From a virus, in IMG/VR virus record IMGVR_UViG_3300021963_007714, positions 1 through 64,000 of that record: a stretch of 64,000 bases of DNA. One strand, given 5' to 3'. Every line of letters begins with the position of its first letter. The stretch's first letter is position 1. The notes below the pieces were generated by a model. It was not told the origin of the DNA and searched no databases. It saw only the letters and a program-made list of their open reading frames with translations. Shown here piece after piece: positions 3,801 to 40,400 of the stretch. Both the position numbers and the translations under genes were made by a program.

Positions 3801-3963
3801 CACTACACAAGCTGAATTTTATCAAAGGCTAGACAGCCTCACAGAAGAACAAAGAATGACCCTATTCATGGGTATCACCAAAGAAGCAGCAGAAATCATG
3901 GCCTTACTGTTACCCGATGAGCCCATGGTAGCAGAATTGCTAGCATTTAAGCGTATGACCTAA
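3790..3963 (+). CDS. Small helical protein of unknown function
   Basis: A 57-residue protein that begins inside the end of the preceding gene (11-nt overlap) and ends in TAATG, sharing one base with the next start. It is predicted to be almost entirely helical and mildly acidic, with paired Met/Leu residues (TLFMGITKEAAEIMALLLP). No motif was recognised. Double overlap with two structural genes supports it being real. It may be a chaperone or adaptor for one of them; that is a guess. Confidence 0.6.
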   Translation: MLFNTTQAEFYQRLDSLTEEQRMTLFMGITKEAAEIMALLLPDEPMVAELLAFKRMT

Positions 3964-5453
3964 TGACCATACAGTACATAACAACCAGCAGCCTAACCAA
4001 TTATGTCAGCAGCCTAACCATTGGCAGCAGCATAGGCTATAGGATCAGTGGTGGGGGTATATTGGGCCCTAAACCCTATATGCAGACTACATCAACCTTG
4101 GATGGTACCCTAATTAGTTTTTCAACCGTGAATACAGAAACTAGGATATTGGTAGTAACAGAAGCAGATCCACAGGGTCGTTTTGAAGCCTACACAGGAG
4201 TAGAGGGTACACGCAAGGCTATCACTTTGACCAATATAGGTAATAGCACCATGCTGGTAGAAGCGCCTGTGTTCAGCAATCGTTTGACTCAGGCTCACCC
4301 TCGTTATCTACGCCTGATGAGGCCGCCTTGGAACATAGCCTCTGGAACTAGTAGAACTTTTCTATTGAGCTATAGTGGACTAGAAGAGGGCACCTTCAGT
4401 GAAAGCATATTTTTCCCTACTCCTACAGCTACCCTACCTTATTATAGAATGGACACCGAAGTGGTCAGCAGATCGGGCTATACCTATTCCGTTGAGCCAT
4501 ATGGTTGGAATACTACCACATTTAGAATAGGTGAAAACTCACTAGTTGACTATACGATAACACCTAGATATTTTGGAGTAGAGGCTGAAGGTTATGAAGT
4601 CCCTATTAGCACAACACTAGTTGGAGATCCTGCTTGGAGTTATGACTACATAGGATCTAATCGTGTTACAGTGAGATTTAGCAGCAGAGGGTTGACCAAT
4701 AATACAACGACCTATGTCAGCACCTTAACCATAGTTACACCTAATGAAACCTTTACCAGAGTCAATACGGCCACTCATAGTGTCAACCTTGCCCTAAACT
4801 ATAATACCAGCACATGGATCAGTGCTCTGTGTTTACCTGATGTCATTGTAGGAATGCGTATAGATCAAGTACAGACATCATCTACAACCACAGCTACAAC
4901 AAGGTTGTTGACCATAGGAGTAGGCAGCGGAGCTGATGGAGCTCCTACCTATGCCCAAGGTGGTAGTCTATATTTCGATCCTGCTAACCTACAGCCAATG
5001 GAAGGCTCTGCCAAGTTACCATTTGCCTATTGGCAGACAGTGTACCAAATACCATTGGTTGGTACTGCTAGTTTAAAAACCTATCTCAGCGGTGATTATA
5101 AGGTAAAAACACAAGAACCTCAGGCCAGGGATTATGATTACTATTTTGGAGTAGACAGTGATCAGGGCAGCATGTTTACCATACGAGAAGACAGTGAGGG
5201 TTATGTTTCTGTGATCATTAATCAGTTGCGAGAAACCAGTGGTGATGCTACACGAGATCTAACATTAACTAGACTGAGCAAGGTATTCTACTATGCTGTG
5301 CCCAGTTTATATTCATATTATCCCAATGGTTGGTTAGGACAAACCATAGACGAATTTGGACAGCCAGACCCCAATGGAACCAATTGTTGGCTATTTGTGG
5401 GATTTGATAATCGCGGTCAAGTACAGCTCAATTTAGTGCCATTACCTAACTGA
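3963..5453 (+). CDS. Beta-rich virion protein of unknown function
   Basis: A 496-residue protein coupled to the previous gene through TAATG. It is rich in Thr, Ser, Tyr and Asn with alternating hydrophobic residues, typical of beta-structured fibre or adhesin proteins. It has no signal peptide, and only two Cys residues were noticed (LCLPD near 287, NCWLF near 475). The C-terminal third (from about 330, KLPFAYWQTVYQIPL onward) differs in composition and may be a receptor-binding head. No domain family was recognised. Context between a fibre-like gene and a repeat/glycosyltransferase gene favours a virion role. Confidence 0.55.
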   Translation: MTIQYITTSSLTNYVSSLTIGSSIGYRISGGGILGPKPYMQTTSTLDGTLISFSTVNTETRILVVTEADPQGRFEAYTGVEGTRKAITLTNIGNSTMLVEAPVFSNRLTQAHPRYLRLMRPPWNIASGTSRTFLLSYSGLEEGTFSESIFFPTPTATLPYYRMDTEVVSRSGYTYSVEPYGWNTTTFRIGENSLVDYTITPRYFGVEAEGYEVPISTTLVGDPAWSYDYIGSNRVTVRFSSRGLTNNTTTYVSTLTIVTPNETFTRVNTATHSVNLALNYNTSTWISALCLPDVIVGMRIDQVQTSSTTTATTRLLTIGVGSGADGAPTYAQGGSLYFDPANLQPMEGSAKLPFAYWQTVYQIPLVGTASLKTYLSGDYKVKTQEPQARDYDYYFGVDSDQGSMFTIREDSEGYVSVIINQLRETSGDATRDLTLTRLSKVFYYAVPSLYSYYPNGWLGQTIDEFGQPDPNGTNCWLFVGFDNRGQVQLNLVPLPN

Positions 5454-5472: not shown

Positions 5473-7260
5473 ATGCTGATAGATAGTATTCCTCAAATTA
5501 CCTATGAACAAGTCGCCAGTATAGAATATCAAGGTGACCATTTACAGTACGACTCTGCTCTAGCTGAACTTGTCACTGAACATGATTATGCTATAGTTAA
5601 AAATCCCAACCTTGCCAATCCAAATTTGGTTTATTTTATAGACAGTATCCCTGATAATCAAAGACAGTGTATAGTATATTATTATAAAGATGAATGGTTA
5701 GCCAAGATCTTCTATCGTGGTTGGACTGCTGATAAAGGTTACAAATCTATTAACATACGAAGTCCACAAGTCGTATGGAGAAAAAACCCAGACCTAGATA
5801 ACTCAATGACATTTATTGACACACCATTTGGCCAATGGGAACCAGAACCATGGGATGTTGAATATACTATGACATGGTATATGGATCCACAGTTTAATCC
5901 CACCTCAGACCGTGTTTGGGTTATGACCTGTGAAGTAATAGGTACTAGCATCAAAGGCATCAAAGATATGGGTTACCTTAGTCCTGAGGTTAACATTGAA
6001 TACAATCCTATGATACCTGCCTTGCTTATTGATCTGGATGGTGCTTTACCTGCCTATTGGGATTTGTCTTATACCTGCGCATACTACCTAGATCCTAGTC
6101 ATTGTGATGCTGATAATGAAAAAGTATGGTTAGTTAAGATTGAGCCTAGTTATAGAAAAACTAAAGATTGGAAATGGTTGGGGATGATCACACCTAGTCC
6201 GGACATTATATATAATCCTACACTTGGCATAGTAAATTATGATATAGACATCGGTCAAACTCATTTTAGCGACTTTGCTTATGAAAATCAATACCTATTA
6301 GACAGAAAGCATCTAGACAACGACCATGATGACATTTGGGCATTTAAAGTATTGTGGTATAGAGAAACACAAGGTCTTAAAGTTATGGGCTATGCCAGCC
6401 CCTTGGTTAATACAGAGGTCAATAGAGATTTGGGCGTTGATCTAGACCTAGATTATGTAATACAGAAAAAAGAATTTGATCGTACATTGGTTTGGTATAT
6501 TGACCCTAAACTGTCTAATATGAATAAAATTTGGGCCCTAAAGAAATGGATAGGGTCAGCAGGACCTGAGCTAGACCAAGGTCTTGTTGATCTAGACATT
6601 GAACAAGAATTTGACGTGGTCTTTATAGACTATGACGAGCCTAATGCTGAAACTAATTGGCAAAGATTACAATCTATAGCGCCTAAGGCATTGAGAGTAA
6701 CTGGCATCAAAGGTATTCTAGAGGCTCACAAGGCAGCAGCTAGAAAATCAACTACAGAAATGTTCTGGGTAGTTGATGCTGATTGTTATCTACAAGATGA
6801 CTGGTCGTTTGATTATATTCCCAGTGTATTTGATAGGGATTGTGTATTTGTTTGGCATAGTCTTAACCCTGTTACCGATCTTCAGTATGGCCATGGCGGT
6901 ATCAAACTCTTACCGAGACAACTGCTAATAGACTTGACAGATTGGGGTACTGATCTCACTCAGAGTATAAGCAAAAAGATAAAAGTTATAGATCGCATCA
7001 GTAATGTTACAGCATTCAATACATCTGAATTTGCCACATGGCGCAGTGCTTTCCGCGAAGTGGCCAAACTCAGTCAAATGAATTCGGCAACAGCACACGA
7101 AAGAATTCAAAGATGGTTGTCACCTAGATCAGATGCTAGGTTTGCTATATGGGCAGAAAAAGGTGCTAGAGATGCATTGAAATGGGTTAAATCAAATCCT
7201 ATTAATCTTATCAACAATTATGATTATCTAGCAGAACATTTTAAGAAAAACTATGAATGA
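5473..7260 (+). CDS. Repeat protein fused to GT-A glycosyltransferase-like domain
   Basis: A 595-residue two-part protein. Residues about 50-360 contain four to five degenerate repeats of 70-75 residues built on a W/Y-x-DP...W...G-Y/M-x-SP...N-x pattern (WYMDPQF 135-141 with MGYLSPEVN 166-174; YYLDPSH 204-210 with LGMITPSPD; LLDRKH 275-280 with MGYASPLVN; WYIDPKL 341-347). Residues about 378-595 form a GT-A-like domain found in marine T4-like phages: DVVFIDYDEPNAETNW (381-396) and FWVVDADC (431-438), whose DAD would bind the metal and nucleotide sugar. The repeats could hold the acceptor. Its 3' end overlaps the first radical SAM gene by 8 nt. Confidence 0.65.
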   Translation: MLIDSIPQITYEQVASIEYQGDHLQYDSALAELVTEHDYAIVKNPNLANPNLVYFIDSIPDNQRQCIVYYYKDEWLAKIFYRGWTADKGYKSINIRSPQVVWRKNPDLDNSMTFIDTPFGQWEPEPWDVEYTMTWYMDPQFNPTSDRVWVMTCEVIGTSIKGIKDMGYLSPEVNIEYNPMIPALLIDLDGALPAYWDLSYTCAYYLDPSHCDADNEKVWLVKIEPSYRKTKDWKWLGMITPSPDIIYNPTLGIVNYDIDIGQTHFSDFAYENQYLLDRKHLDNDHDDIWAFKVLWYRETQGLKVMGYASPLVNTEVNRDLGVDLDLDYVIQKKEFDRTLVWYIDPKLSNMNKIWALKKWIGSAGPELDQGLVDLDIEQEFDVVFIDYDEPNAETNWQRLQSIAPKALRVTGIKGILEAHKAAARKSTTEMFWVVDADCYLQDDWSFDYIPSVFDRDCVFVWHSLNPVTDLQYGHGGIKLLPRQLLIDLTDWGTDLTQSISKKIKVIDRISNVTAFNTSEFATWRSAFREVAKLSQMNSATAHERIQRWLSPRSDARFAIWAEKGARDALKWVKSNPINLINNYDYLAEHFKKNYE

Positions 7261-8572
7261 TCTAGATCAATATAAGAATAATAATAGTTTTTGTGCTGTT
7301 CCCTTTGTCAGCATGATGGTCAATACTGACACCACTATAAGATATTGTTGTATGGTGAAGGGCACAGCCAATAAGATTAGAAAGACAGATGGTACGTTTT
7401 ATCATTGCCAAGACAATTTTATCAAGGACGCATGGAACAGTTCTGATATGAAGACCATTAGACTGAACATGATTCAGGGTAATAAGATTGAAGGTTGTTC
7501 AGTATGCTACCTACAAGAAGAAAGCGGAAGAGTCAGCAACAGACAACATGCCAACAGAGAATGGAGCTACAGATTAGGTGCTGATAAATTAGTTGATCTT
7601 ATTCAGCAAGCAGAGAATAATCAAGGACAATTAGCGGATGATATAGTTTATCTAGACCTACGACTTGGAAATCTTTGTAATCTCAAATGCAGGATGTGTA
7701 ATCCTTGGAACAGCAGTCAAATAGCCAAAGAACATATGGTGTTGAACAATACTGATTCTGCCTACGCTGAAGTTTGGAAAAAGACATTTGGTAAATTTCC
7801 TATATCAGTTTTAGAAAATCAAAGTTGGTTTGAAAGTGATATACTATGGGATCAGGTCATAGCTCTTATACCATCTCTTAAAAAAGTTTATATGACTGGT
7901 GGTGAACCTACATTGATTGAGCATAATCAAACATTCATGCAAAGTTGTATAGATCAAGGTCGAACAGATATTGAACTGTTCTTTAACACTAATTGTACCA
8001 ACATCAATAAAAGATTTTTAGAATTGATCAAGCAATTTAGCACAGTGTCTATAAATGCCAGCGTTGATGGTGTAGGCATTGTAAATGAATATATTAGACC
8101 ACCTAGTAGATGGAGTCAGTTGTCCTCGAATATTGAAAAACTAGCACAAATGCCCAATGTTAAACTGGGTCTTACACCAACTGTACAAGTTTATAACATA
8201 CTCAACCTTGTTGATGTTTTAAGATATGTTGATCAACTCAATGACAAATACCGCAATAATATCTTTGTGGATTTTTTAATAAATGTACATCCATATCATC
8301 TCAGTGCCACAATACTACCTGATCATATTAAATTGCGAGCAAGGCAACAATTAGAAAACTATGTTGATCTGGAGATGTCAAGTCAAACACATGAGTTGAC
8401 AAAAAATAGTATTAGAGGCATCGTCGGTCTTCTTCAAAAGACAGCTCCGGAGGACTGTGAGGAGCAGGTTAGAAGGTTAAGAATTTACACAGAGAGTCTA
8501 GACAGGGAAAGGGCACAGAGTTCTAATGATCTAGGGCCCGAACTAAGAGAATTTTTACATGGAAAAATCTAA
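7253..8572 (+). CDS. Twitch-type radical SAM protein A
   Basis: A 439-residue radical SAM enzyme. The cluster motif is CNLKCRMC (Cys142, 146, 149), followed by the SAM-binding GGEPT at about 218-222. Ahead of the radical SAM core is an extra Cys-rich N-terminus (C14, C32-C33, C82-x-x-C85) like the twitch/SPASM auxiliary-cluster set, but placed N-terminally. The reaction is unknown; family members modify peptides, sugars or cofactors. It overlaps the GT gene by 8 nt and its paralogue by 14 nt, so all three are probably one translational unit. It would need an intact [4Fe-4S] supply, and Fe-S genes lie near 20.6-22.1 kb. Confidence 0.85.
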   Translation: MNDLDQYKNNNSFCAVPFVSMMVNTDTTIRYCCMVKGTANKIRKTDGTFYHCQDNFIKDAWNSSDMKTIRLNMIQGNKIEGCSVCYLQEESGRVSNRQHANREWSYRLGADKLVDLIQQAENNQGQLADDIVYLDLRLGNLCNLKCRMCNPWNSSQIAKEHMVLNNTDSAYAEVWKKTFGKFPISVLENQSWFESDILWDQVIALIPSLKKVYMTGGEPTLIEHNQTFMQSCIDQGRTDIELFFNTNCTNINKRFLELIKQFSTVSINASVDGVGIVNEYIRPPSRWSQLSSNIEKLAQMPNVKLGLTPTVQVYNILNLVDVLRYVDQLNDKYRNNIFVDFLINVHPYHLSATILPDHIKLRARQQLENYVDLEMSSQTHELTKNSIRGIVGLLQKTAPEDCEEQVRRLRIYTESLDRERAQSSNDLGPELREFLHGKI

Positions 8573-9830
8573 GACCTTTTGCATCCTACCGTGGATTCAT
8601 GCTGCGACCTATACAGATGGCAGTGTATTATTGTGTTGCGTAGCCAAAAATTCAGGATCAATCAATCTCAATCATCAGAATTGGCAGCAGGCATGGAACA
8701 GTGATCATTTCAAACAGGCCAGGCTGGCCATGTTAGAAGGGCGTGCGTTTAATGCCTGTGATCATTGTTATAAAGAAGAAGCGGCAGGAATTCGTAGCCA
8801 TAGACAAAATGAAAATAACCTATGGTATAGAGAGTTAGGTAGTGAGTATCTGGACAATCTAGTTCAAGCAACTCGTGCTGATGGTCATGTTGACAATGAT
8901 ATTATTACAATTGATCTCAGATTGGGCAATACCTGTAATCTACAATGTGTTATGTGTAGACCTGTAGATAGCAGTAAATGGGTACGAGATGCTAACATAT
9001 TAGCGAATGAACTTCAAACCGATGCCAAATATGATTGGAAATATAAACTAGAAAATTTTGCCATAGATAATTTTGATTGGTATAAAGACCCAGAGTTTTG
9101 GAATAGCTTTTTTGAATCTGCCAAGGATATTAGGCACATCATTTTAGCAGGTGGCGAACCTCTTTATATTAAAGAGCATAAAGAAATACTTACTCAACTG
9201 GTTAACAAGGGATTCAGTAAAAACATTGAATTAAGATATCATACCAATGGTACAATTTACAATCAGTCCATAGTTGATCTTTGGCAAGAATTTCGCAGAG
9301 TTGAAGTTATGATCAGCTTGGATGGTCATGGAGAAGTTAATTCTTATATTAGATATCCAGCAGATTGGCATCTACTAGAAAAAAATTTAGAACTTTATGA
9401 TTGTACTCCTGATGTTGTAGATCCTAAAATATTGTGTACAGTACAGGCACTAAACATTTATTGGCTTCCAGAATTCGCCGATTGGTTGATAAGCAAGAAT
9501 TTTAAAAAGATAAGCAAGAAACATCACAAAGGATTATTTCATCCAGGCATTCTTCATTGGCCGCAATACCTTAGCATAAAAGTATTTCCGATAGAGATTA
9601 AAAAACAAATCTCACACAAGTTAACTCAGTATTGCCAACAATATCCTAATAACCATCAGATTCAAAAATTTTTAGGTCTTGTTGATTTTATGAATAGTGA
9701 AGATCATAGTCATAAATTTTCAGAAATGATAGAGTATTTAGAAAAATTAGATGATCTACATAATACAGATTATCATACAATTTTAGATTGGATTTCCTAT
9801 GGCATTGATGACAATAAACTTTTTAGATGA
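8559..9830 (+). CDS. Twitch-type radical SAM protein B (paralogue of A)
   Basis: A 423-residue paralogue of the preceding gene. Cluster motif CNLQCVMC (Cys126, 130, 133); SAM loop AGGEP near 202. It has the same N-terminal Cys set (C8, C26-C27, C67-x-x-C70) within matching text: FCILPWIHA here, FCAVPFVSM in A. The tandem arrangement suggests duplication followed by specialisation, perhaps a heterodimer or two successive steps. The next gene begins inside its 3' end. Confidence 0.85.
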   Translation: MEKSKTFCILPWIHAATYTDGSVLLCCVAKNSGSINLNHQNWQQAWNSDHFKQARLAMLEGRAFNACDHCYKEEAAGIRSHRQNENNLWYRELGSEYLDNLVQATRADGHVDNDIITIDLRLGNTCNLQCVMCRPVDSSKWVRDANILANELQTDAKYDWKYKLENFAIDNFDWYKDPEFWNSFFESAKDIRHIILAGGEPLYIKEHKEILTQLVNKGFSKNIELRYHTNGTIYNQSIVDLWQEFRRVEVMISLDGHGEVNSYIRYPADWHLLEKNLELYDCTPDVVDPKILCTVQALNIYWLPEFADWLISKNFKKISKKHHKGLFHPGILHWPQYLSIKVFPIEIKKQISHKLTQYCQQYPNNHQIQKFLGLVDFMNSEDHSHKFSEMIEYLEKLDDLHNTDYHTILDWISYGIDDNKLFR

Positions 9831-10743
9831 TAACAATGAAACTCATAAAATTAGGTTTTACATTTATAAATCTAATCTTGCTCACAGATGGAGAAAAATG
9901 GTTATGGCAAACCAAGAGCAGGAAAAAGAATTAAATTATAAATTTACAAATAGGACCTACGATCAAATTAGTAAAGTAAGACAAGACCTTAATCTCGTTG
10001 TTCAAAATATAAATTTAACGTATGATAAAAAATTACCTATTTTTGACGATGTTGAAGTTCTCAACACAGACATTTTAAATTATCTTCATGAAGAATTTGA
10101 AGAATATGGAGATAGAATACCAGAGTTAACTAATCCAGTAACCTGGTGGACTAAAGAACTACATGATTATTTCTTAAAGTTAAACGAGTTGATTCATTTA
10201 CACGAGGATGTTTTGAAAAGTAAAGATGCTGCCTTTGCCAACATGGCATTATTATTTGATTATTATCCTCAAGAAATATTCAGCCCTATATTGGAAAGAG
10301 ACAAGTTATTTTTAAAGGCAGATTTACATTGGGGCAAAGTATATCTAGGATACAACACCTTAGGTAAAGATTGGTTAAAAGTTCATTTAGACAATGATAT
10401 AGAAGTCCTAAAGAGAGGACAGGTTAGACCCCAAAAGAGGTTCGCTGCAGAAACGTGGATCAATTTTGGCCCGGACGGGTCTCCTTATTATCAATATCAA
10501 TCTTTTGAACAATGGTACATGAGTCTTGATAGCGAACTTCAAAAGTTAGTCCCTATAGATAATCTTAATGAACTATGTTTAGGTAGATTTATAATTGGTG
10601 AGGTCATAATAGATAATTACTTTTTAGCATTTGATCCTATCAAAGAAAATTGGCTGATACCAAGCAGTAGTACAAAAAAACGATGGAACCAACAAGTTTT
10701 TTCTAAGTTTCGAAAAATTAAAGAAATCTACATCAATGAATAG
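9799..10743 (+). CDS. Unknown protein of the radical SAM operon
   Basis: A 314-residue soluble protein, rich in Lys, Glu, Asp, Tyr and Trp, without recognisable motifs, Cys clusters or membrane segments. It may start at ATG 9799 (GGA six bases upstream) or ATG 9808; both overlap the radical SAM B gene. Its 3' end overlaps radical SAM C by 8 nt. Its position between two radical SAM genes suggests a partner or accessory enzyme for them. I do not recognise the family. Confidence 0.6.
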   Translation: MALMTINFLDDNNETHKIRFYIYKSNLAHRWRKMVMANQEQEKELNYKFTNRTYDQISKVRQDLNLVVQNINLTYDKKLPIFDDVEVLNTDILNYLHEEFEEYGDRIPELTNPVTWWTKELHDYFLKLNELIHLHEDVLKSKDAAFANMALLFDYYPQEIFSPILERDKLFLKADLHWGKVYLGYNTLGKDWLKVHLDNDIEVLKRGQVRPQKRFAAETWINFGPDGSPYYQYQSFEQWYMSLDSELQKLVPIDNLNELCLGRFIIGEVIIDNYFLAFDPIKENWLIPSSSTKKRWNQQVFSKFRKIKEIYINE

Positions 10744-11821
10744 AAAATTAATACAAATTCGTCAGGCTGAAAATGTTTTACAATTGACCTGGATATTAAA
10801 CAATATCTGTACTAATCATTGCGACTATTGCCCTCCCACTTTACACTCTGGTACCAATCACCATTATGATTGGAAATACGCAAAAAGTTTTGTAGAAAGA
10901 TTATTGAAAAGATATTCTAAAATACATTGTAGTATCAGTGGTGGGGAACCTACTCTAAGCCCGTTTTTTCCTGAATTAGTTAAAATGTTTCATTCTTCAG
11001 GTCATACTGTAGGTATCACAACGAATGGTGCTAGAAGTGTTAGATACATTGAAGAAGTTGCTCCATTTTTAAGTTATATTTGTTTCAGTTATCATCCTCA
11101 ATATGATGATCCTAAGTTAATTGACAAAGTTTTAGCGGCTAGTAATCATACTCATGTCTCTGTTCGAGTGATGATGGACGACAGATATTGGGACAGATCT
11201 AAGGCAATGTTTGAAAGACTGTTACAATACCAAGAGATAAGAGTAGAAAGTGTTAAGATATTAGCAGAAATGGCAGATAGACACATAGGAGATAGCTATA
11301 CAGATGAACAATTGAAATGGTTAGCAGAAAATAATGGACGTCATGCAACTGTTCATCCGTATCTTTTCAAAAATCCTAATTGGAGGAAGTCGCAAACAGG
11401 CACAGTATTTTACTATGACAACGGGGATATCGATATCTCAGGAGACACAAATTATCTAATCAATACGGGACAAAATGATTTTAGAGGATGGAGTTGTAAT
11501 ATCGGATTAGAAAGTCTGTTTGTACATTTTAATGGTTATGTCAAAAAAGGAAATTGTTTTCAAGGTGGGGATTTATTTCATATAGACAATCATGAGAGGT
11601 TCGAACTACCTACTAAGGCAGAAGTCTGCCTCCAGCATATTTGCCATTGTGGTACTGATGTTATGATAAGTAAAGTTCCAGTGTTTGATAAAGATAGTGC
11701 ATGGATTAGAGATAATCTTAATCTAAGAACTCCTAAATCAGAGAAAGAATATCAAGATACCTATAATGAAATATCAAAAAAGAGAAAACCGGTCATCAAA
11801 ATTGTTCCAGAAAATCTATGA
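10736..11821 (+). CDS. Radical SAM protein C
   Basis: A 361-residue radical SAM enzyme of a different subtype from A and B. The cluster motif is near the N-terminus (CTNHCDYC, Cys25, 29, 32), then SISGGEPT (about 69-76). The C-terminal third has further cysteines (WSCN, GNCF, EVCLQHICHC) that could bind an auxiliary cluster in SPASM fashion. ATG overlaps the previous gene by 8 nt and its stop shares ATGA with the hydroxylase-like gene. Substrate unknown. Three radical SAM enzymes in one coupled run suggests a dedicated modification pathway. Confidence 0.85.
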   Translation: MNRKLIQIRQAENVLQLTWILNNICTNHCDYCPPTLHSGTNHHYDWKYAKSFVERLLKRYSKIHCSISGGEPTLSPFFPELVKMFHSSGHTVGITTNGARSVRYIEEVAPFLSYICFSYHPQYDDPKLIDKVLAASNHTHVSVRVMMDDRYWDRSKAMFERLLQYQEIRVESVKILAEMADRHIGDSYTDEQLKWLAENNGRHATVHPYLFKNPNWRKSQTGTVFYYDNGDIDISGDTNYLINTGQNDFRGWSCNIGLESLFVHFNGYVKKGNCFQGGDLFHIDNHERFELPTKAEVCLQHICHCGTDVMISKVPVFDKDSAWIRDNLNLRTPKSEKEYQDTYNEISKKRKPVIKIVPENL

Positions 11822-12498
11822 ATACTGAATTACTATCCTTTATTGAAATCAACAAAAAATTTAATTGGCGCCCGGAAAAAATCTTACCTCAGAATCTATG
11901 GTCATCTGATTGGCCGTGGGTGCCCGTGTTTCCTTCAAAGTTTGATTATCAATCTATTATGTTAGAAATGGATGAGATAGATTACCTTTTTGTTCCGCAT
12001 AGGGATAAGGACAAGATTAATAGTTATGGACATGAGGGGTGGTATTCTATTACACTTCATGGAATATCACATGATAAGACTGAAAATTTTGATAGATATG
12101 GATTCAGCAGTCAAGAAGAAGCTGGATATGATTGGACAGAGGTATGTAACCTTATACCTAAAACCATAGAGTTAGTTAAAAACTTTCCTTTTAGGAACTA
12201 TGGTAGAATACGGATAATGAGGTTATCTCCTGGGGGGTATATAATGCCGCATACAGATGGCCCTTCAAGAATGTTTGGACCTTTTAATTTTGCGCTGTCA
12301 AACCCTGAAGGTTGTGAATTTATATTTGAAAATTTCGGATTGGTTCCATTTCGAACAGGTAGAGGATTTATGTTAGATATAGGAAACAGGCACTGTGTGT
12401 TTAATCAATCAAATCAATATAGATATCATGTTATTATTCATGGTGAACCTATGCCACAAATTAATGAACATATCTTAAAGTCTATGGCGTTATTATGA
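11818..12498 (+). CDS. Aspartyl/asparaginyl beta-hydroxylase-like 2OG oxygenase
   Basis: A 226-residue protein with the double-stranded beta-helix ligands of the Asp/Asn beta-hydroxylase family: IMRLSPGGYIMPHTDGPS (133-150) gives His145-x-Asp147, and NRHCVFNQSNQYRYHVIIHG (190-209) gives the distal His192 and the 2-oxoglutarate Arg202. It should be a non-haem Fe(II)/2-oxoglutarate dioxygenase. ATGA overlaps on both sides couple it to radical SAM C and to the next gene. It likely acts on the same substrate as the radical SAM enzymes (inference). Confidence 0.75.
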   Translation: MNTELLSFIEINKKFNWRPEKILPQNLWSSDWPWVPVFPSKFDYQSIMLEMDEIDYLFVPHRDKDKINSYGHEGWYSITLHGISHDKTENFDRYGFSSQEEAGYDWTEVCNLIPKTIELVKNFPFRNYGRIRIMRLSPGGYIMPHTDGPSRMFGPFNFALSNPEGCEFIFENFGLVPFRTGRGFMLDIGNRHCVFNQSNQYRYHVIIHGEPMPQINEHILKSMALL

Positions 12499-13880
12499 AC
12501 ATTATTACAGAACCATTTGTTAATGATATTGGACTGTCTATCTGTATATTTCCTGCAGATACCCTACATAATCAAGAATTAATTGATAGAATGACCGAAT
12601 ATACGACTTTCTACGCATTAAGATTTGCCCAGTTATCAAATGACAGAAATCCTCCAGTAGAAGTTTTCCACGCTATGAATATAGAGTCTGGTCTACATGA
12701 TCTATCTGATCAATTTGAGCATATTTTGTTTATGGCCGCAGGGGTAAGAATATATGATATGAGTATTATTTTCGATATAAAAAATATTATTCAACAAAAT
12801 CATAATTATTTGGCTGCTGCTCATATTTTAGAATGGCAAGAAAGGTGGTATGAACTACATCATCAATTTATATTGATTAATACTAAAAAATGGATTGCCG
12901 CAGGAAGCCCAGATTTTGGAGGATGGGAGGAACGAGTTGATAGTCTGCCTATTATTGAGCGAAGCATAGAAAATTTTCATGATCATTATACACCATTATG
13001 GATAAGATTTACGGGTGAATATAAAGAACAAAAACATCAAAAGCAGGGATGGAATTTTATCAACCAAGCAGCAAGAAACGGATTTGATATTATAAATTGG
13101 GATAATAATGTTAGATCAAAACGAACATATTATTATCCAGAAGATAATAGCGAACGATTTTTACATAGTCTAAAGACTTTAGAAATTGATCCTAAGGCTA
13201 ATGCTAACCAACGAAATCTTATTAATCAATTGAAAATAGTCAGTAGTCAAATATGGCTTTTAAATTCTGAAAATATGGATTTGGAGTTGAACGGTGAGAA
13301 ATTCGATACGATTGCTTTACCTGCTGCAGGATTTAAGTTTTTACATTGTTTGCTAACGCAATCACTGTCACAAGGAGGTAAGCTATTAATTTACGATTAT
13401 AACCCCTTGAGTATATCCTGGATTGAATTTATATATAATTCTAAAGATAGAAAAATTGATGATTTGATAAAATCATTTGAATATAAGCATTTTTTTAAGT
13501 TTTTTAAGAATAATGTTTTTGGTAAAGAAGGTTTATATACTAAAGAATTTAATGATAGCCTTAAAATTACCAAGGAGTTTTTCGGCGGGGCAGACGAATT
13601 TGAAAAACTTCTTAATATTTTTAGAACTACAGATGTTGAATTTATTACTTTAGACTTGTTATCAGATCCACAATTATTAACAGATAAATTTCTTGGAAAA
13701 ACGGTAGTAAATATTTCTAATATTTTTTGTACTGATTTTAGTAATGCTTACTTAGGTATGAAATTGACCACGGAAAAGTTACGAAATTTTTTAGGCTCTA
13801 TTAAAACAGAAACATTAGTTTTAGGACAAGACTCTTATTGCAGGCCAATTAAAAAGCGTATTAAATATGCTCAAGTATAA
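12495..13880 (+). CDS. Large unknown protein, possible transferase with Rossmann-like C-terminus
   Basis: A 461-residue protein, start overlapping the hydroxylase-like gene (ATGA). Residues 1-200 include FEHILFMAAGVRIYD, reminiscent of a GT-A nucleotide-binding strand but without a clear DxD. Residues 265-420 contain FDTIALPAAGFKFLH and LSQGGKLLIYDYNPLS, a layout seen in degenerate SAM-dependent methyltransferases, though the Gly-rich motif I is missing. Either assignment is tentative. The last 20 nt overlap, tail to tail, the end of the minus-strand radical SAM gene, so transcription converges here without an obvious terminator. Confidence 0.55.
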   Translation: MNIITEPFVNDIGLSICIFPADTLHNQELIDRMTEYTTFYALRFAQLSNDRNPPVEVFHAMNIESGLHDLSDQFEHILFMAAGVRIYDMSIIFDIKNIIQQNHNYLAAAHILEWQERWYELHHQFILINTKKWIAAGSPDFGGWEERVDSLPIIERSIENFHDHYTPLWIRFTGEYKEQKHQKQGWNFINQAARNGFDIINWDNNVRSKRTYYYPEDNSERFLHSLKTLEIDPKANANQRNLINQLKIVSSQIWLLNSENMDLELNGEKFDTIALPAAGFKFLHCLLTQSLSQGGKLLIYDYNPLSISWIEFIYNSKDRKIDDLIKSFEYKHFFKFFKNNVFGKEGLYTKEFNDSLKITKEFFGGADEFEKLLNIFRTTDVEFITLDLLSDPQLLTDKFLGKTVVNISNIFCTDFSNAYLGMKLTTEKLRNFLGSIKTETLVLGQDSYCRPIKKRIKYAQV

Positions 13881-15861
13881 AAATTCGTTTTGTTTTTCCT
13901 TTTTCTATCTTTTTGTCTAAGGAAGAAGTAATGATGTCTTTTTCTGAACAATAGTCTGCCCATGCCTGTTCTTTGATAACATTAATGTAGGTTTGTTTTT
14001 CATCCCAGTGCCCATTACCCTCCCATTCGAAATGAAAACTTTTACTTCCGTCTAGCCACCATTCTCCTTCATGATGAAATTTAGACTTGTGCCTAACTGT
14101 AAAATTACCCTGTGTATCTATTTTAATATAGTGATATCCTTCATAATTATCAGATAGATAATCACCAAATTCGTTGGCATCTCTAACTTTGTCAAAAGTT
14201 ATCTCAAATTCGAAACCACCCTTAACTCTCCATAACATTCTTATAAATCCCCAAATTTCATTTACAATGGTGTCAGCAAATGGACCGAGATTTGGTTTAA
14301 AAATATTATGATCAAACTCCTCATATTGAATTTCATCTAAAAATAAGTCATTGTCAAACTTTAATGAAAAATGATTAATTATATCAGGTCGTTCTTGATT
14401 ATTATCAATTATCCCATATTGTTTACATACTCTTAACCAAATATTAAAATATTTTAATCTAATGAAACGATGTAATTTTGTGTTGGTCCAGTCTAACGAC
14501 CACCACTTATGTAAAAATGTTTTTTCCCAAGGACTCATATTATAACGATCTCTATTAAATTCATAATCAGTTTGCATACTGTCACCTAATGTAACTCCTG
14601 GACTAATACCTCCTATCCTATTCCTATGATTCCATATTAAATTTAGGCTATGAGCCATTGCTTGAATATCCTCAGCAGGTGCCCCTACAATCCAATTAGC
14701 ATGACTAAAAATTCCTACCTTAGATGCGTTTATAAGGTTTTCATTAATGTCCTTAATTTTTACATTTTTCCTCATAAGATCTAAAACTTTTTGACTACCG
14801 CTTTCGATCCCGTAACTTAAATTAGCACATCCGCTGGCTTTCAGGTCTTTATAATAATCTAGGTCCATTCTTCCGTCACATCTTGCATACCCCATCCATT
14901 GAATTTTCAGTCCTCGTTCTACCACACCTTTGGAAAATTCACGTAATTCTTTCAAATTACCATTTGTAAGACTATCTATGAACCAAACAAAGTTAATTCC
15001 ATAGGTCTTACTCTGATACTCTAGTTCGTCTAGAATATTATCAGCTTTTCTATCTCTGTATTTCCAAAACCATGTCTCTCTACAAAAACTACATTTTGCT
15101 ACACATCCTCTACTTAACTCCGCACTTATTCCATAGCTACTTGTATATTTTGAGAAATCATAATCGCTGTAATCTGGTATAGGTAGACTATCTAGATCTA
15201 TTCTTGTCTCTCCAAAAGTTTTTCCTAATTTTCGCTCAGTGACTAGTTTGTTGTTTTCAACATTTTGTAAGTAGTCAATTAATACTTGCTCGCCTTCACC
15301 TGCAACCCAATGGTCTACTGAAGGACATGGTATATAATCAGGCATATGACATTGAGGTCCTCCGCAGATTATTTTTAAATCTGGTCTAACTTTTTTTAAT
15401 TCAGTTGCCAGCCATTCTGTGGGCTCTCTGTTAGTATCATATACACTAAACCCTATTACATCCGGATTTTCTAATAAAATTTTTTCTAAATATTGTCTAA
15501 GTATAGGTTCTAGGGTAGGGTGTATTCGTTTCTGATATTCTCCGTTGAACCACCAATAATGGTTATTAGCATCCCACGCTGCATCAAGTCCTGAAGGCTT
15601 TAGATCATAATAACTTTCTATGTTAAGATCAAACACCTTAGTGTAGTATCCTGCATCTCTAGTCAAAGCAGATAGTCTTGCTAGGTTATAGGGAGGAAAG
15701 TAAACTCCCCAACATCCTAATATACATAATACCAGTTTAGTCTTTCTAGTGACATTATGATACGTTATTGCTGATAGATTTTGTCTTCTAGGCTTATAGT
15801 TTTGCTTAGGCAATACCGTTTCCGCTAACCAAACATGTTTATCTTTAACTTCTGTAGTCAT
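13861..15861 (-). CDS. B12-binding-type radical SAM protein
   Basis: A 666-residue protein with a class B (cobalamin-dependent) layout. An N-terminal Rossmann-like domain spans about 40-200 (KLVLCILGCWGVYFPPYNLARL, with FPPYNLARLSAL, DVIGFSVYDT and IICGGPQ typical of B12-binding radical SAM enzymes). The radical SAM core follows, with CVAKCSFC (Cys253, 257, 260). The classical DxHxxG cobalamin motif is not evident, so the base-off ligand may be absent. The last 170 residues are acidic and unrecognised. Known relatives methylate unactivated carbons or rearrange rings. It is read against its neighbours and its start abuts a TATAAATA box facing the other way. Confidence 0.8.
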   Translation of the reverse strand: MTTEVKDKHVWLAETVLPKQNYKPRRQNLSAITYHNVTRKTKLVLCILGCWGVYFPPYNLARLSALTRDAGYYTKVFDLNIESYYDLKPSGLDAAWDANNHYWWFNGEYQKRIHPTLEPILRQYLEKILLENPDVIGFSVYDTNREPTEWLATELKKVRPDLKIICGGPQCHMPDYIPCPSVDHWVAGEGEQVLIDYLQNVENNKLVTERKLGKTFGETRIDLDSLPIPDYSDYDFSKYTSSYGISAELSRGCVAKCSFCRETWFWKYRDRKADNILDELEYQSKTYGINFVWFIDSLTNGNLKELREFSKGVVERGLKIQWMGYARCDGRMDLDYYKDLKASGCANLSYGIESGSQKVLDLMRKNVKIKDINENLINASKVGIFSHANWIVGAPAEDIQAMAHSLNLIWNHRNRIGGISPGVTLGDSMQTDYEFNRDRYNMSPWEKTFLHKWWSLDWTNTKLHRFIRLKYFNIWLRVCKQYGIIDNNQERPDIINHFSLKFDNDLFLDEIQYEEFDHNIFKPNLGPFADTIVNEIWGFIRMLWRVKGGFEFEITFDKVRDANEFGDYLSDNYEGYHYIKIDTQGNFTVRHKSKFHHEGEWWLDGSKSFHFEWEGNGHWDEKQTYINVIKEQAWADYCSEKDIITSSLDKKIEKGKTKRIFILEHI

Positions 15862-15868
15862 ATAAATA
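15861..15868 (+). promoter_or_regulatory. Late promoter box (exact TATAAATA)
   Basis: An exact T4-type late box whose first base is also the first base of the divergent B12-type radical SAM start codon. Predicted transcription start is near 15874, leaving a 15-nt leader with GGAG (15879-15882) before ATG 15889. Confidence 0.7.
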
Positions 15869-15888
15869 TTTTCGCTTTGGAGTATTTA

Positions 15889-16758
15889 ATGAAGAAATAC
15901 AATCATATCGCAGTAATGATTAGAGGGCTACCTAGAACATGGAATTACGCTAAACACTCTATCTTTTATACTTATAGCAAAATTGCCTATAATATAGATT
16001 ACTATTTTTCAACTTGGGATTTGGATTATATAGATGAAAATGTTATCAGATATGATTTTAAAGGTAAAAACCTTGTTGCCCTTGTTAAATGCCCTATAAT
16101 AGAAGAGTATAGAGATGTTTTTAGAAGTCCCGGATGGTTCTCCTATAATCTTCTACCAGCTATGCGTTTAAGAGATCAGGAAATTCAATATGAGGCAATT
16201 TTTGATCAAAGGACAGATTGTATCAATTATATATTTGGGGATCATTTCGATATAACCCCAAATACCTACCATACCGAATGGGTATGCCCGGAACAACGAT
16301 CTATACGGCATGTCTGTGATTGTAATTTTGCATGTGATTCTAACACTTATGAAAAATTAGCACTACGATTTTTAAAAACTGAAATGGAGTTAGGGCAAGT
16401 GAATTGGCGAGATCTTGATTTTAATTGGAGTAATGCTATAAGGTCAAACAATCCTATACTACTACCTGGGAAAACTATTATATTGAACACAGAAGCAGTG
16501 ATGTTTAACTTTATAAGGCAGGCTAGGATAGAAATTAAGGTTAACAGATTAATAAATTCCATCTTATGTAGGCCATCTATGATAGAGAAATGCCCAGATC
16601 CTTTACAAATTTGTTTTTTACCAAGACCTTGGGAATGGTATAGATTTTTTAGCAATGGTATTGTTAATGAATGGGATACTATGAATAATGAAGATAAAGT
16701 TAATTTGTGTCTCAAGCATAACATCAATCCTAGCGAATATTTTCTTAGTCAACCTTAA
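15889..16758 (+). CDS. Glycan-type protein of unknown function
   Basis: A 289-residue protein beginning MKKYNHIAVMIRGLPRTWNYAK. This start was chosen because GGAG lies 6 nt upstream and a TATAAATA box precedes it; an upstream in-frame ATG at 15835 would overlap the divergent gene. The opening (hydrophobic strand, then RG-x-x-RTW) followed by IDYYFSTWDLD resembles proteins found near glycosyltransferases in marine phages and bacterial polysaccharide loci. DQRTDC (about 107-112) could be a catalytic DxD-like site. No firm family assignment. First gene of the run 15889-18955. Confidence 0.5.
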   Translation: MKKYNHIAVMIRGLPRTWNYAKHSIFYTYSKIAYNIDYYFSTWDLDYIDENVIRYDFKGKNLVALVKCPIIEEYRDVFRSPGWFSYNLLPAMRLRDQEIQYEAIFDQRTDCINYIFGDHFDITPNTYHTEWVCPEQRSIRHVCDCNFACDSNTYEKLALRFLKTEMELGQVNWRDLDFNWSNAIRSNNPILLPGKTIILNTEAVMFNFIRQARIEIKVNRLINSILCRPSMIEKCPDPLQICFLPRPWEWYRFFSNGIVNEWDTMNNEDKVNLCLKHNINPSEYFLSQP

Positions 16759-37493: not shown

Positions 37494-40400
37494 ATGCCGA
37501 TCTTAGTGTTTCCTCCTCCCGGTTCACCCGGTTCACAAGCTTTAACTGCTACCTTCGTAGTAGTAGTACCAGAAGCTGGAACACCTAAACAAGTCCTTCA
37601 AAGTATATCAACCTCTACTGTAACTGTTTTTATACAGGAAGGTATTCCAGTCACCAGTCAACCTGCGTATTATTCAGCAGATGTAGTTAATTGGTATATA
37701 AATGATAATACATTGTTGCCATTAACACCAGTAAGTCAAAGCACTATTACTTTGACCTATAGGTCAACACCTATCTACAATCCATTAAACAAGATTAAGA
37801 TAAGATCGTCTAGTTATGAATTTCCTATAATTGTTACACCTACTACAGTAACTAGCACTTCTCTTAGTTTTACCAATCCTATTGAACTTAATTTGCCAGT
37901 AATAAGCGATGCTAGGATATATTTTGGAGAAAATACAACTGTAGAGACGCCTAGGTATTCTGGAGATAGTGTCCCTACGTACGAATTAAAATACACAGGA
38001 AGAAAATTTCCTAAGATACCTGTGTTGGAAATTCCAGAGCGTGGATACCAACTAACTACCGTTACCAACACCACAGCTACCCTTGGACCAACAGTTGGGG
38101 TTCCTATAGTAAATCAAACATATTTTGATTCATCGAATTATGTTAATTACTACCTATATGATTCAGATATCTTTACTGTAACTCATAGTGTCCCGCCAAC
38201 GATAACAGTAAATTTTGTCTACGATCAGCGTATAAAAATTACCAACCTGATTAGAGTTGCCAATCAAGAATATACGTACCCTAGAGTTTTGACCCTAACA
38301 AGTTCAACTAATTCCAGTATAACATTTAATAATCCTGGAGATTTTGGTGTTTGGTCTCAAGGGTACATTTACTTTCAAGAAATCAATTCTATTCAAATAG
38401 CTAGTTACACAGCTACCAATAACACAGTACTATTGGGCAACTTTGATCTTGTAGCAAGAAGAAAAGTTAGAATTGGAGTAGAGTTAGCAGAACTGCCAAA
38501 CTTACCAAACGCAGAAGTTGTCCAAAAAAATGATCAGCTTAGGGCAATAGGATATCAATTTGGAAAGCCAGGCCCGAGTTTTCAAAATATCACAACCTCT
38601 AGTATTGTTATATTCCCTAATCCTGGATATTCAGCATTAACACAATCGGCCTATTACAGTTCTGACATTGTACGTAATTATATCTATGATGAAGATTTAT
38701 TCCCGTTAACTGCGTCAACAGAGTCAACTGTAGTTCTAACATTTAATCCTGTAGAATATATTAATTTAGTTAACAAAGTAAGAATTAGTGGAAGTAGCTA
38801 CACCTATCCAACTATACTAAATCTTACCAGTGCAACAAACACATCAGTTTCATTTGTCAATCCTGGTGATTTCCCAATTATATCAGAACCAGTAATTTAT
38901 TTTGGTCAGGACAGCATAACAGAAAATGTAAGATATTCAAGTGATCTAGTATCTGAATTTAGTTCGGCTTTGGTTTCAAATCCAGTTTTTAGAATTGTAC
39001 AACCATTATTTGAATTACGTCCTAGAGCAGCAATTTTAGTTACAGTAACTAACTATACCAGCACAATGTTTTCTAGTATAGGTATACCTATATTAAATCA
39101 AACTGCCTATTATACTTCAAATGTTGTAGATTACTATATAAATGATAATGATCTGTTGCCTTTGACCGCAATAAGCACAGCATCAATTACAATATCTTTC
39201 TTTAATAGCATATATACCAATCAGCTTAACAGAGTAAGAATAGCTAACGAAACTTATGAATATCCTAGAGTAATTAACCTCACAACATCAAATTCTACCA
39301 GTATAACTTTTAATAACCCTGGAGATTTTGGTATCATATCTGAAGGAAAAATCTATTTTCAAGAATCTGTGACACAGGTAAATTCAGTTTATAGTGAGTC
39401 ACCTTACCAGTTTAATATCGCCTATCCTACTCTAGATGTGAAGCGACATGTAAGAATAGGAGAACAATTTGTAGATACAACTCTAAGGGTAGGTAGCCAA
39501 GAATTATCAACTGTAACATCATCAGCTACCATTGTATACCCTGGACCAGCAATACCTATACCTTATTTGGAAAGTAAGTATTTGGCAGATGTGGTGAATT
39601 ATTATATCAATGATAATGATCTATTACCATTAACCAATTTAACTACGGCTTCGATCAGACTGAACTTTGCCTATACAACATTTCAAAACCCTATCAATAA
39701 AATTAGGATCTTTGGACCGGAGTATAACTATCCTAGATTAATCACGATAACCAGTGCTACAAATACCTATGTAGAATTCGCTAACCCCGGTGATTTACCA
39801 GTTATCAGTGATCCTAAATTTCAATTTGCTGAAAACAGTCAAATAGATACAGCTATCTACATAAGCCGAGATTTTGCTAATTTTACCTATCTGCCATATA
39901 GAAAAGTTAAATTAGGTAATGAAATAAAAGCCAGTTCTACCAGTACTATAACATCGGGTGCTGTGGCTAGATATAAATTTTCCTTACCACTTACTACACA
40001 ATTTTCTAATCAACTGCCTCCAAACATAGGTGCTATTAATGTATGGACAGCATTAGATCACGATCTACCATTCTTTAATACACCTCTCGTATATAATATT
40101 GCTCAAACAATTTATACAACTGGTTTTCCTGCTCCCGGTTTTTATACCTATACATCAGTTCAACGTGGAGATGTGGCCAGAGGCCTAGCACCAATAACTA
40201 TTCCAGGTGACATTGCTAGCTATACCAATAATTATTTGGTTTTCTTAGGCAGGGCTCCTTTAAGAGAACCTGCAGCAGGTTTGGTAAAAATAGGGCAAGG
40301 AGCACTTACAAGAAGAATAGTTGAACCAATTAGATTTACTCGTCCTAATATCTACATCACTGTTACATCAGCTACATCATTTGCTAGATCAGTTAACCTT

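What the first reader, a model, noticed from the sequence alone, without database searches (positions are those of the whole stretch)
5473..13880. Seven-gene translationally coupled pathway: repeat-GT, three radical SAM proteins, hydroxylase and two unknowns
Every junction from 7253 to 12495 overlaps (8, 14, 32 or 23, 8, 4 and 4 nt). The genes encode a repeat protein with a GT-A domain, radical SAM A and B, an unknown, radical SAM C, an Asp/Asn hydroxylase-like 2OG enzyme and another unknown. Such coupling usually means one pathway or complex. The mix of sugar transfer, radical chemistry and hydroxylation does not match a phage pathway I know.
Basis: partly seen in the sequence, partly recalled or inferred. 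Interest (0 to 1): 0.75.

Follow-up and report, generated by a model that had tools for sequence, protein, structure and literature searches.

The report
Phage enzyme-tailoring gene cluster, product unknown
Many uncultured tailed phages carry a tightly packed set of oxidising, radical-forming and sugar-transferring enzymes, built around three proteins that are repeatedly fused to one another in different ways, so they very probably work as one machine that chemically decorates some molecule, perhaps a surface sugar chain, that nobody has yet identified.

Summary
In this record all 6 junctions in the run overlap, against 15 of 70 elsewhere. Relatives show a layered cluster. The core is a trio: U4 (9799-10743, undescribed family), OX (11818-12498, Fe/2OG oxygenase, PF05118) and U7 (12495-13880, undescribed; GT-A-like plus methyltransferase-like fold). 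Of 27 dereplicated viral U4 loci with full flanks, 25 keep OX and U7 nearby. The trio's genes are fused pairwise in all combinations across viruses and Bdellovibrionota, and once all together as U4-OX-U7. The two N-twitch radical SAMs and the repeat-GT come and go. Catalytic residues of OX and the radical SAMs are invariant. The substrate is unknown; a surface glycan is my leading guess, a peptide or virion protein the main rival. Radical SAM cassettes in marine phage host-recognition regions are already reported (PMC7029224, passages read); I found no description of the trio.

The parts
5473..7260 (+). G1: 595-aa protein, repeated N-terminal modules plus C-terminal GT-A-like domain with D-x-D (D435, D437)
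   Evidence: ORF; alignment with L001/L002, D435 and D437 invariant in 4 of 4 rows; no Pfam/PHROG/NCBIfam hit
7253..8572 (+). RA: N-terminal-twitch radical SAM protein
   Evidence: NF033640, 351 bits (cut-off 170); Cys 14,33,82,85,142,146,149 invariant among 128-129 relatives scored
8559..9830 (+). RB: second N-terminal-twitch radical SAM protein
   Evidence: NF033640, 378 bits
9799..10743 (+). U4: undescribed family; cyclophilin-like barrel with helical insertion carrying conserved N94, H97, E101, N129, H133, E136
   Evidence: no curated family
10736..11821 (+). RC: radical SAM protein with C-terminal Cys-rich (SPASM/twitch-like) part; fused to U4 in five relative clusters
   Evidence: PF04055; U4-RC fusion; 8 invariant Cys
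11818..12498 (+). OX: Fe(II)/2OG oxygenase of the Asp_Arg_Hydrox family
   Evidence: PF05118, 46 bits, cut-off 22.6; H145, D147 and R130 70/70, H192 and R202 69/69
12495..13880 (+). U7: undescribed family; GT-A-like N domain without D-x-D, NNMT-like methyltransferase-type C domain
   Evidence: no curated family
13861..15861 (-). B12-binding radical SAM protein, convergent with U7 (20-nt overlap of the 3' ends); fused to U7 in relatives
   Evidence: PF02310, PF04055; U7-B12 fusion, four clusters; same convergent arrangement in L085
15835..16758 (+). W9: unknown protein; a homologue lies just before RA in L003, so it probably belongs to the wider island
   Evidence: no Pfam hit
3963..5453 (+). 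496-aa unknown protein ending 19 nt before G1 (candidate virion protein; listed as neighbour only)
   Evidence: no Pfam/PHROG hit

Best explanation
The run encodes a modular tailoring pathway built round a three-protein enzyme complex, U4-OX-U7. Shown: the three genes travel together, are fused in every pairing and once all three, and OX and the radical SAM enzymes keep every catalytic residue. Inferred: U4 binds the shared substrate or an intermediate (it is fused N-terminally to OX in some phages and to RC in others) and may hold a metal or catalytic centre of its own (N/H/E cluster); OX hydroxylates an unactivated carbon with Fe(II), 2-oxoglutarate and O2; U7 acts next through its methyltransferase-type domain, its GT-A domain having lost D-x-D and probably serving to bind substrate; RA, RB, RC and the B12 enzyme are add-on radical modules that dehydrogenate, epimerise, cross-link or C-methylate the same scaffold; G1 adds a sugar. 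The most likely target is a surface glycan or glycolipid of the host (or a glycan on the virion), changed so as to alter phage adsorption, for example to exclude superinfection. Confidence by step: one complex (trio) 0.85; all belong to one pathway in this phage 0.7; surface-glycan target 0.45.
For: Fusions in viral contigs, by dereplicated cluster: OX-U7 22, U4-RC 5, U4-OX 3, U7-B12 4; in Bdellovibrionota: U7-U4 (G002), U4-OX-U7 in one 1072-aa ORF (G031), OX-U7 (G009, G010, G202, G205, G206). Linkage: 25 of 27 U4 clusters with full 6-kb flanks have OX and U7; 28 of 29 U7 clusters have OX and 25 of 29 have U4. Pairwise identities correlate: U4-OX 0.90, U4-U7 0.92, OX-U7 0.91 (56 clusters, 0 of 2000 permutations as high), against 0.57-0.67 for RC with the trio (24 clusters). 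The contiguous order twitch-twitch-U4-RC-OX-U7 recurs in 9 other clusters, and with the GT in front in L085, L103 and L132. Catalytic residues invariant. For a glycan: bacterial OX-U7 inside a run of GT2, GT2, GT1 and epimerase genes (L225), with GT2 and carbamoyltransferase in L229 and GT2 in L194; viral neighbours include GT-like (16 clusters) and carbamoyltransferase (10 clusters) families (names by eye except L087's carbamoyltransferase); PMC7029224 (passages) links such regions to O-chain change.
Against: No protein was shown to bind another and no substrate was found. U4 also occurs alone: 37 of 368 Bdellovibrionota genomes have U4 but only 13 have U7, and 17 of 20 U4 neighbourhoods fetched show no radical SAM within two genes, so U4 is not a part made only for this pathway. 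In core-only phage loci the trio sits among replication genes, with no GT or radical SAM beside it (names by eye). Bacterial trios beside methylmalonyl-CoA mutase-like genes (L223) or alone (L219) give no glycan context. Three of 13 U7 genomes have no detectable U4. Correlated identities partly reflect shared phage ancestry.
Confidence: 0.5

Rival explanations
1. Peptide or protein tailoring: the cassette works like a RiPP (proteusin-type) maturation set, or modifies a phage virion protein such as a tail-fibre or tip protein; U4 plays the role that leader-binding domains play in RiPP enzymes.
For: The same mix, a PF05118-type hydroxylase (EreI), a radical SAM enzyme (EreD), a B12 radical SAM methyltransferase (EreB) and a methylating enzyme (EreM), acts on one peptide in the pythonamide pathway (PMC9259500, passages read). 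The B12 enzyme's best NCBIfam match is ApyD, a RiPP enzyme (104 bits, below its cut-off 750). U4's barrel resembles cyclophilins, which bind peptides. U4 is fused to two different modifying enzymes. In the window G1 starts 19 nt after a 496-aa candidate virion protein.
Against: No conserved small gene was found beside the trio: the commonest small neighbours are phage-lineage specific (ORFs under 60 aa not tested). Pfam found no PqqD-like domain. Bacterial trios have no virion protein to modify.
Confidence: 0.33
2. Nucleobase or nucleoside modification: the enzymes decorate phage DNA or make a modified nucleoside.
For: Phages are known to combine 2OG oxygenases, glycosyltransferases and carbamoyltransferases for DNA hypermodification (recalled, not tested). 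Core-only trios lie among replication genes. [quoted passage not shown]
Against: OX belongs to PF05118, not to the TET/JBP or AlkB families. The trio also sits in bacterial chromosomes, in one case next to surface-glycan genes.
Confidence: 0.08
3. Accretion without common function: a variable region near the tail genes collects useful enzyme genes, and overlap reflects dense packing.
For: 44% of other neighbouring junctions also overlap; G1, RA, RB and RC come and go.
Against: Does not explain fusions of every trio pair, the triple fusion, the same trio in bacteria, or the excess of overlaps inside the families.
Confidence: 0.09

Closest known systems
Radical SAM cassettes in the host-recognition cluster of pelagimyophages (PMC7029224, passages read)
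   Same: Large marine myophage, cassette near tail genes, radical SAM genes with glycosyltransferases; an aspartyl/asparaginyl beta-hydroxylase is named as core in those phages
   Different: The passages read do not describe U4, U7, the fusions or the trio, and propose no chemistry for the radical SAM genes
Pythonamide (ere) proteusin pathway (PMC9259500, passages read)
   Same: PF05118-type hydroxylase, radical SAM, B12 radical SAM and a methylating enzyme acting on one substrate
   Different: No precursor peptide found here; U4 and U7 have no counterpart named in those passages; this cluster also has a GT
Collagen-modifying hydroxylase/glycosyltransferases (LH3, COLGALT1) and PBCV-1 capsid GT
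   Same: GT-A fold resembling U7's N domain (Z 9.2-9.9); hydroxylase and GT-like domains in one polypeptide (LH3), as in OX-U7
   Different: U7 lacks D-x-D; OX is PF05118, a different 2OG family (recalled); no sequence relationship found
AspH, aspartyl/asparaginyl beta-hydroxylase (5apa and others)
   Same: Same Pfam family, alignable core (E 0.0015)
   Different: OX has a canonical H-x-D...H triad where the aligned AspH reads H-T-G

Membership tests
N_Twi_rSAM (NF033640) | Whole-protein score above curated cut-off (170 bits) | tested here: met
   RA 351, RB 378 bits
Radical SAM superfamily (PF04055) | CxxxCxxC site binding the radical cluster | tested here: met
   RA C142/C146/C149, RC C25/C29/C32, B12 enzyme C253/C257/C260 invariant in all relatives scored
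Asp_Arg_Hydrox (PF05118) | Score above cut-off and intact metal ligands | tested here: met
   46 vs 22.6 bits; H145, D147 70/70 and H192 69/69
AspH proper | H-T-G in place of H-x-D at the iron site | tested here: not met
   HTDG in OX against HT-G in 5apa
GT-A glycosyltransferase (U7 N domain) | D-x-D nucleotide-sugar/metal motif | tested here: not met
   [AS]-[AS]-G or similar at the expected place in sequence order; Asp at position 83 in 2 of 45 rows and no D-x-D. Fold match only
Class I SAM methyltransferase (U7 C domain) | Glycine-rich motif I and acidic residue after beta 2 | tested here: inconclusive
   NNMT-like fold Z 9.8; D301 45/45 but motif I reads A-[AS]-G-F-K
Cyclophilin-like fold (U4) | Cyclophilin barrel | tested here: inconclusive
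   Z 8-10 to several cyclophilins, 128-148 residues; no Foldseek PDB hit at E 0.001
RiPP biosynthesis pathway | Precursor peptide gene | tested here: inconclusive
   No conserved small neighbour across lineages; ORFs under 60 aa not tested
RiPP biosynthesis pathway | Leader-binding (PqqD-like) domain | tested here: inconclusive
   No such Pfam hit at E 0.1 in the proteins scanned
Prokaryotic viperin (RC, RA, RB) | Score above cut-off (180 bits) | tested here: not met
   RC 36.9 bits; PADLOC pVip 42 bits at best
TET/JBP-type DNA hypermodification system | TET/JBP oxygenase and modified virion DNA | not testable with these tools
   OX falls in PF05118; base composition of virion DNA cannot be read from sequence

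The most novel reading that the evidence does not exclude
U4-OX-U7 is a new kind of three-part tailoring enzyme: a metal-bearing helical insertion in a cyclophilin-like barrel (U4), an Fe/2OG oxygenase (OX) and a re-purposed glycosyltransferase/methyltransferase (U7) acting in sequence on one substrate, with radical SAM enzymes plugged into it through U4 and U7. It is spread through uncultured phages and Bdellovibrionota and makes a class of compound not yet described.
Probability: 0.3. Interest if true: 0.82.

Novelty: new variant of a known kind. Interest (0 to 1): 0.62.

Why it matters
Radical SAM genes are repeatedly reported as abundant 'auxiliary metabolic genes' in marine viromes without a firm role (PMC7150976 and PMC9301287, passages read). 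This work ties one group of them to a defined three-protein core with two undescribed families, gives fusions that predict which proteins touch, and points to forms small enough to express (one 1072-aa U4-OX-U7 ORF in a Bdellovibrionota genome; U4 plus a ~670-aa OX-U7 fusion in phages). That makes the chemistry directly testable. It also warns that such phage radical SAM genes may be mislabelled from weak matches (for example to heme-synthesis enzymes: RB matches the AhbD model at 21 bits against a cut-off of 500).

Tried and rejected
Rejected or weakened: (1) All seven genes as an obligate unit: rejected, GT, RA, RB and RC vary. (2) Overlap as proof of a pathway: weak, see the controls. (3) Known defence system: only sub-threshold viperin-like hits for RA, RB and RC and one PDC-M51A candidate-system hit (45 bits) for the B12 enzyme. 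(4) U4 as a part dedicated to OX/RC: weakened by stand-alone U4 genes in Bdellovibrionota. (5) Cyanophage-type variable ORF before U4 as substrate: seen only in core-only loci of one phage type. (6) Promoter and terminator scan: no more sites than in shuffles. (7) U4, U7, G1 and the L067 U4 and OX-U7 proteins by tblastn in 50,697 phage records: no match; RA: 4 weak matches. U4 profile in genome contigs: none, but only one short pattern was used, and a wider profile search of one phylum then found 37 of 368. (8) Foldseek of U4 against PDB: nothing at E 0.001. (9) PDB sequence searches: A6 one hit and A5 seven, all at E above 0.05 and in unrelated proteins; A3 none. (10) Atu_ph07: U4-like by fold (BFVD A0A2L0UZJ4); the profile alignment of the 300-aa gene there is not significant, and that this gene is the BFVD entry is inferred from its length. 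(11) Literature: searches gave no description of the trio; the library holds open-licence papers only, and of the papers listed I read passages of four.

Limits: the locus sets are the best 80 of 148 (U4) and 80 of 164 (U7) matches plus 40 RC loci; loci L005/L006 of the window's own record were dropped, and 188 loci plus the first 24 kb of the window were clustered into 91 groups by shared 31-mers. ORFs were called by a simple script (longest first, small overlapping ORFs dropped); domain thresholds are. Names such as gp45/gp46, clamp loader, GT8-like, SGNH, mutase and NodU that are not backed by a cited Pfam call are by eye or recalled.
Full report
OBSERVATION. The seven ORFs, their ATG starts and the overlaps of 8, 14, 32 (or 23), 8, 4 and 4 nt are in the sequence as described. 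In the 109,028-bp virus record that holds the window, 6 of 6 junctions in the run overlap against 15 of 70 other same-strand junctions. In relatives, 273 of 316 junctions between members of these families overlap, against 448 of 1027 others. So the packing is unusual, but overlap by itself is common in these phages. The record is a tailed phage with contractile-tail features: baseplate wedge, tail fibre and virion structural proteins and DNA ligase, DNA polymerase and ribonucleotide reductase.

WHAT THE GENES ARE. RA and RB are N-terminal-twitch radical SAM proteins (NF033640, 351 and 378 bits, cut-off 170). RC is a radical SAM protein with a Cys-rich C terminus; OX is a PF05118 Fe/2OG oxygenase. 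Across dereplicated relatives OX keeps H145 and D147 (70 of 70) and H192 and R202 (69 of 69); RC keeps C25/C29/C32 and C254/C274/C298/C303/C305; the twitch enzymes keep C14/C33/C82/C85 and C142/C146/C149. G1 has an intact D-x-D (4 of 4 rows) but no curated family. U4 and U7 match no Pfam, NCBIfam or PHROG family credibly. On the opposite strand, overlapping U7's end by 20 nt, is a B12-binding radical SAM gene (13861-15861).

STRUCTURES. U4 was predicted at mean pLDDT 94.9, pTM 0.88. It has a barrel that aligns with cyclophilins (Z 8-10, 128-148 residues, rmsd 3.2-3.7) interrupted by helices 52-144; Foldseek alone found nothing in PDB at E 0.001. In BFVD it matches nine uncultured Caudovirales proteins and one of Agrobacterium phage Atu_ph07 at E 0.001 or better. 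The insertion carries N94, H97, E101 and N129, H133, E136 on two helices, conserved in 46-51 of 51 viral rows and in 19-23 of 23 bacterial ones, which suggests a metal or catalytic site (inference). U7 was predicted at pLDDT 93.5, pTM 0.90: residues 1-245 resemble GT-A enzymes (LARGE1 Z 10.0, PBCV-1 capsid GT 9.9, LH3 9.4, COLGALT1 9.2) and 246-461 resemble NNMT-type methyltransferases (Z 9.8). Where D-x-D is expected by sequence order U7 reads AAG or SAG or the like, and none of 45 rows has D-x-D there; the methyltransferase part keeps D301 in 45 of 45 but lacks the usual glycine motif. So U7 looks like a pseudo-glycosyltransferase joined to a possible methyltransferase.

COMPARATIVE GENOMICS. 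Profile scans of IMG/VR gave 148 loci for U4, 164 for U7 and 41 for RC (the best 80, 80 and 40 kept). After grouping near-identical contigs (91 groups): of 27 U4 groups with full 6-kb flanks, 25 have OX and U7; of 29 such U7 groups, 28 have OX and 25 have U4; of 25 RC groups (all, whatever their flanks), 12 have U4 and 22 a twitch radical SAM. The contiguous order twitch-twitch-U4-RC-OX-U7 occurs in 9 groups besides the window, with the GT in front in L085, L103 and L132; L085 also has the convergent B12 gene. Exceptions: L016 and L028 have U4 with radical SAMs but no OX or U7 nearby, and groups L157, L160 and L164 carry only the U4-RC fusion.

FUSIONS. By group: OX-U7 22, U4-RC 5, U4-OX 3, U7-B12 radical SAM 4. 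In L101 the B12 part is split over two ORFs.

BACTERIA. The U7 profile found three Bdellovibrionota MAGs and then 13 of 368 genomes of that phylum. There, OX is beside or fused to U7 in the neighbourhoods read except L230, where none was seen; G002 has OX next to a U7-U4 fusion; G031 has one 1072-aa ORF with U4, OX and U7 in the phage gene order, near an RC relative; G010 has U4 next to OX-U7. U4 was found in 37 of 368: in 10 of the 13 U7 genomes and 27 of the other 355 (Fisher p 7e-9, relatedness not controlled). Most stand-alone U4 genes lie in unrelated surroundings: 17 of 20 neighbourhoods fetched have no radical SAM within two genes. This is the main fact against U4 being a dedicated adaptor.

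CO-INHERITANCE. Pairwise identities of the trio correlate at 0.90-0.92 over 56 groups, with 0 of 2000 permutations as high; RC correlates at 0.57-0.67 over 24 groups. Shared phage ancestry inflates all these values; the contrast with RC is the informative part.

MECHANISM. Best reading: U4 presents a substrate, OX hydroxylates it, U7 acts next; RC, RA, RB and the B12 enzyme are optional radical steps; G1 adds a sugar. The protein associations are strongly indicated, the order of steps is inference. For the substrate I put a surface glycan first (0.45): bacterial OX-U7 sits among two GT2, a GT1 and an epimerase gene in L225, and L229 and L194 have GT2, with a carbamoyltransferase confirmed in L229; phage neighbours include GT-like and carbamoyltransferase families; and published work links such phage regions to O-chain change (PMC7029224, passages). 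Peptide or virion-protein tailoring comes second (0.33), with the pythonamide pathway as a near analogue in enzyme make-up (PMC9259500, passages). DNA or nucleoside modification and mere accretion are less likely (0.08, 0.09).

PRECEDENT AND NOVELTY. Radical SAM cassettes in host-recognition regions of pelagimyophages, and a core aspartyl/asparaginyl beta-hydroxylase there, were reported in 2020 (PMC7029224). Viral radical SAM genes are called abundant but of unknown or doubtful role (PMC7150976, PMC9301287; passages). Nine searches of the open-licence library showed nothing on the trio or its fusions. I class it as a new variant of a known kind (phage-borne tailoring islands) whose core enzyme complex appears undescribed.

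CULTURED HANDLES. Agrobacterium phage Atu_ph07 has four radical SAM-like genes round a 300-aa gene that may be its U4-like BFVD entry, near a 13-kb structural gene. Vibrio phage K566 has an array of twitch radical SAM genes. No U7 or PF05118 gene was found in Atu_ph07.

Noticed in passing
window 37494-53672: A single 5392-aa ORF downstream of the tail-fibre-like genes, probably a giant structural protein; Atu_ph07 has a comparable 13-kb structural gene near its radical SAM array.
   Followed up: no
L234 (Atu_ph07 116-123 kb): Cultured jumbo phage with four radical SAM-like ORFs around a 300-aa ORF that may be a remote U4 relative, all annotated hypothetical.
   Followed up: partly
L235 (Vibrio phage K566 158-178 kb): Four ORFs matching the twitch radical SAM profile in about 7 kb of a named phage genome record; no U4, OX or U7 seen there.
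   Followed up: partly
Bdellovibrionota genomes, e.g. L240-L259: U4 occurs as a stand-alone gene, sometimes in two copies, with its N/H/E residues conserved; function unknown.
   Followed up: partly
L099 11353-11898 and relatives: A ~200-aa unknown protein (methyltransferase-like by eye) is the commonest neighbour family, in 24 groups; no Pfam hit for this member.
   Followed up: no
window 15835-16758: W9, unknown protein whose homologue lies just upstream of RA in L003; no Pfam match.
   Followed up: partly
L192 17487-18500 (record 101487-102500): Phosphate-transporter-subunit-like gene (PHROG 5385) in the same phage record.
   Followed up: no
L220, L221, L228 (Bdellovibrionota): Arrays of several twitch radical SAM genes around OX-U7 or partial U7 genes, among the largest arrays seen.
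   Followed up: no
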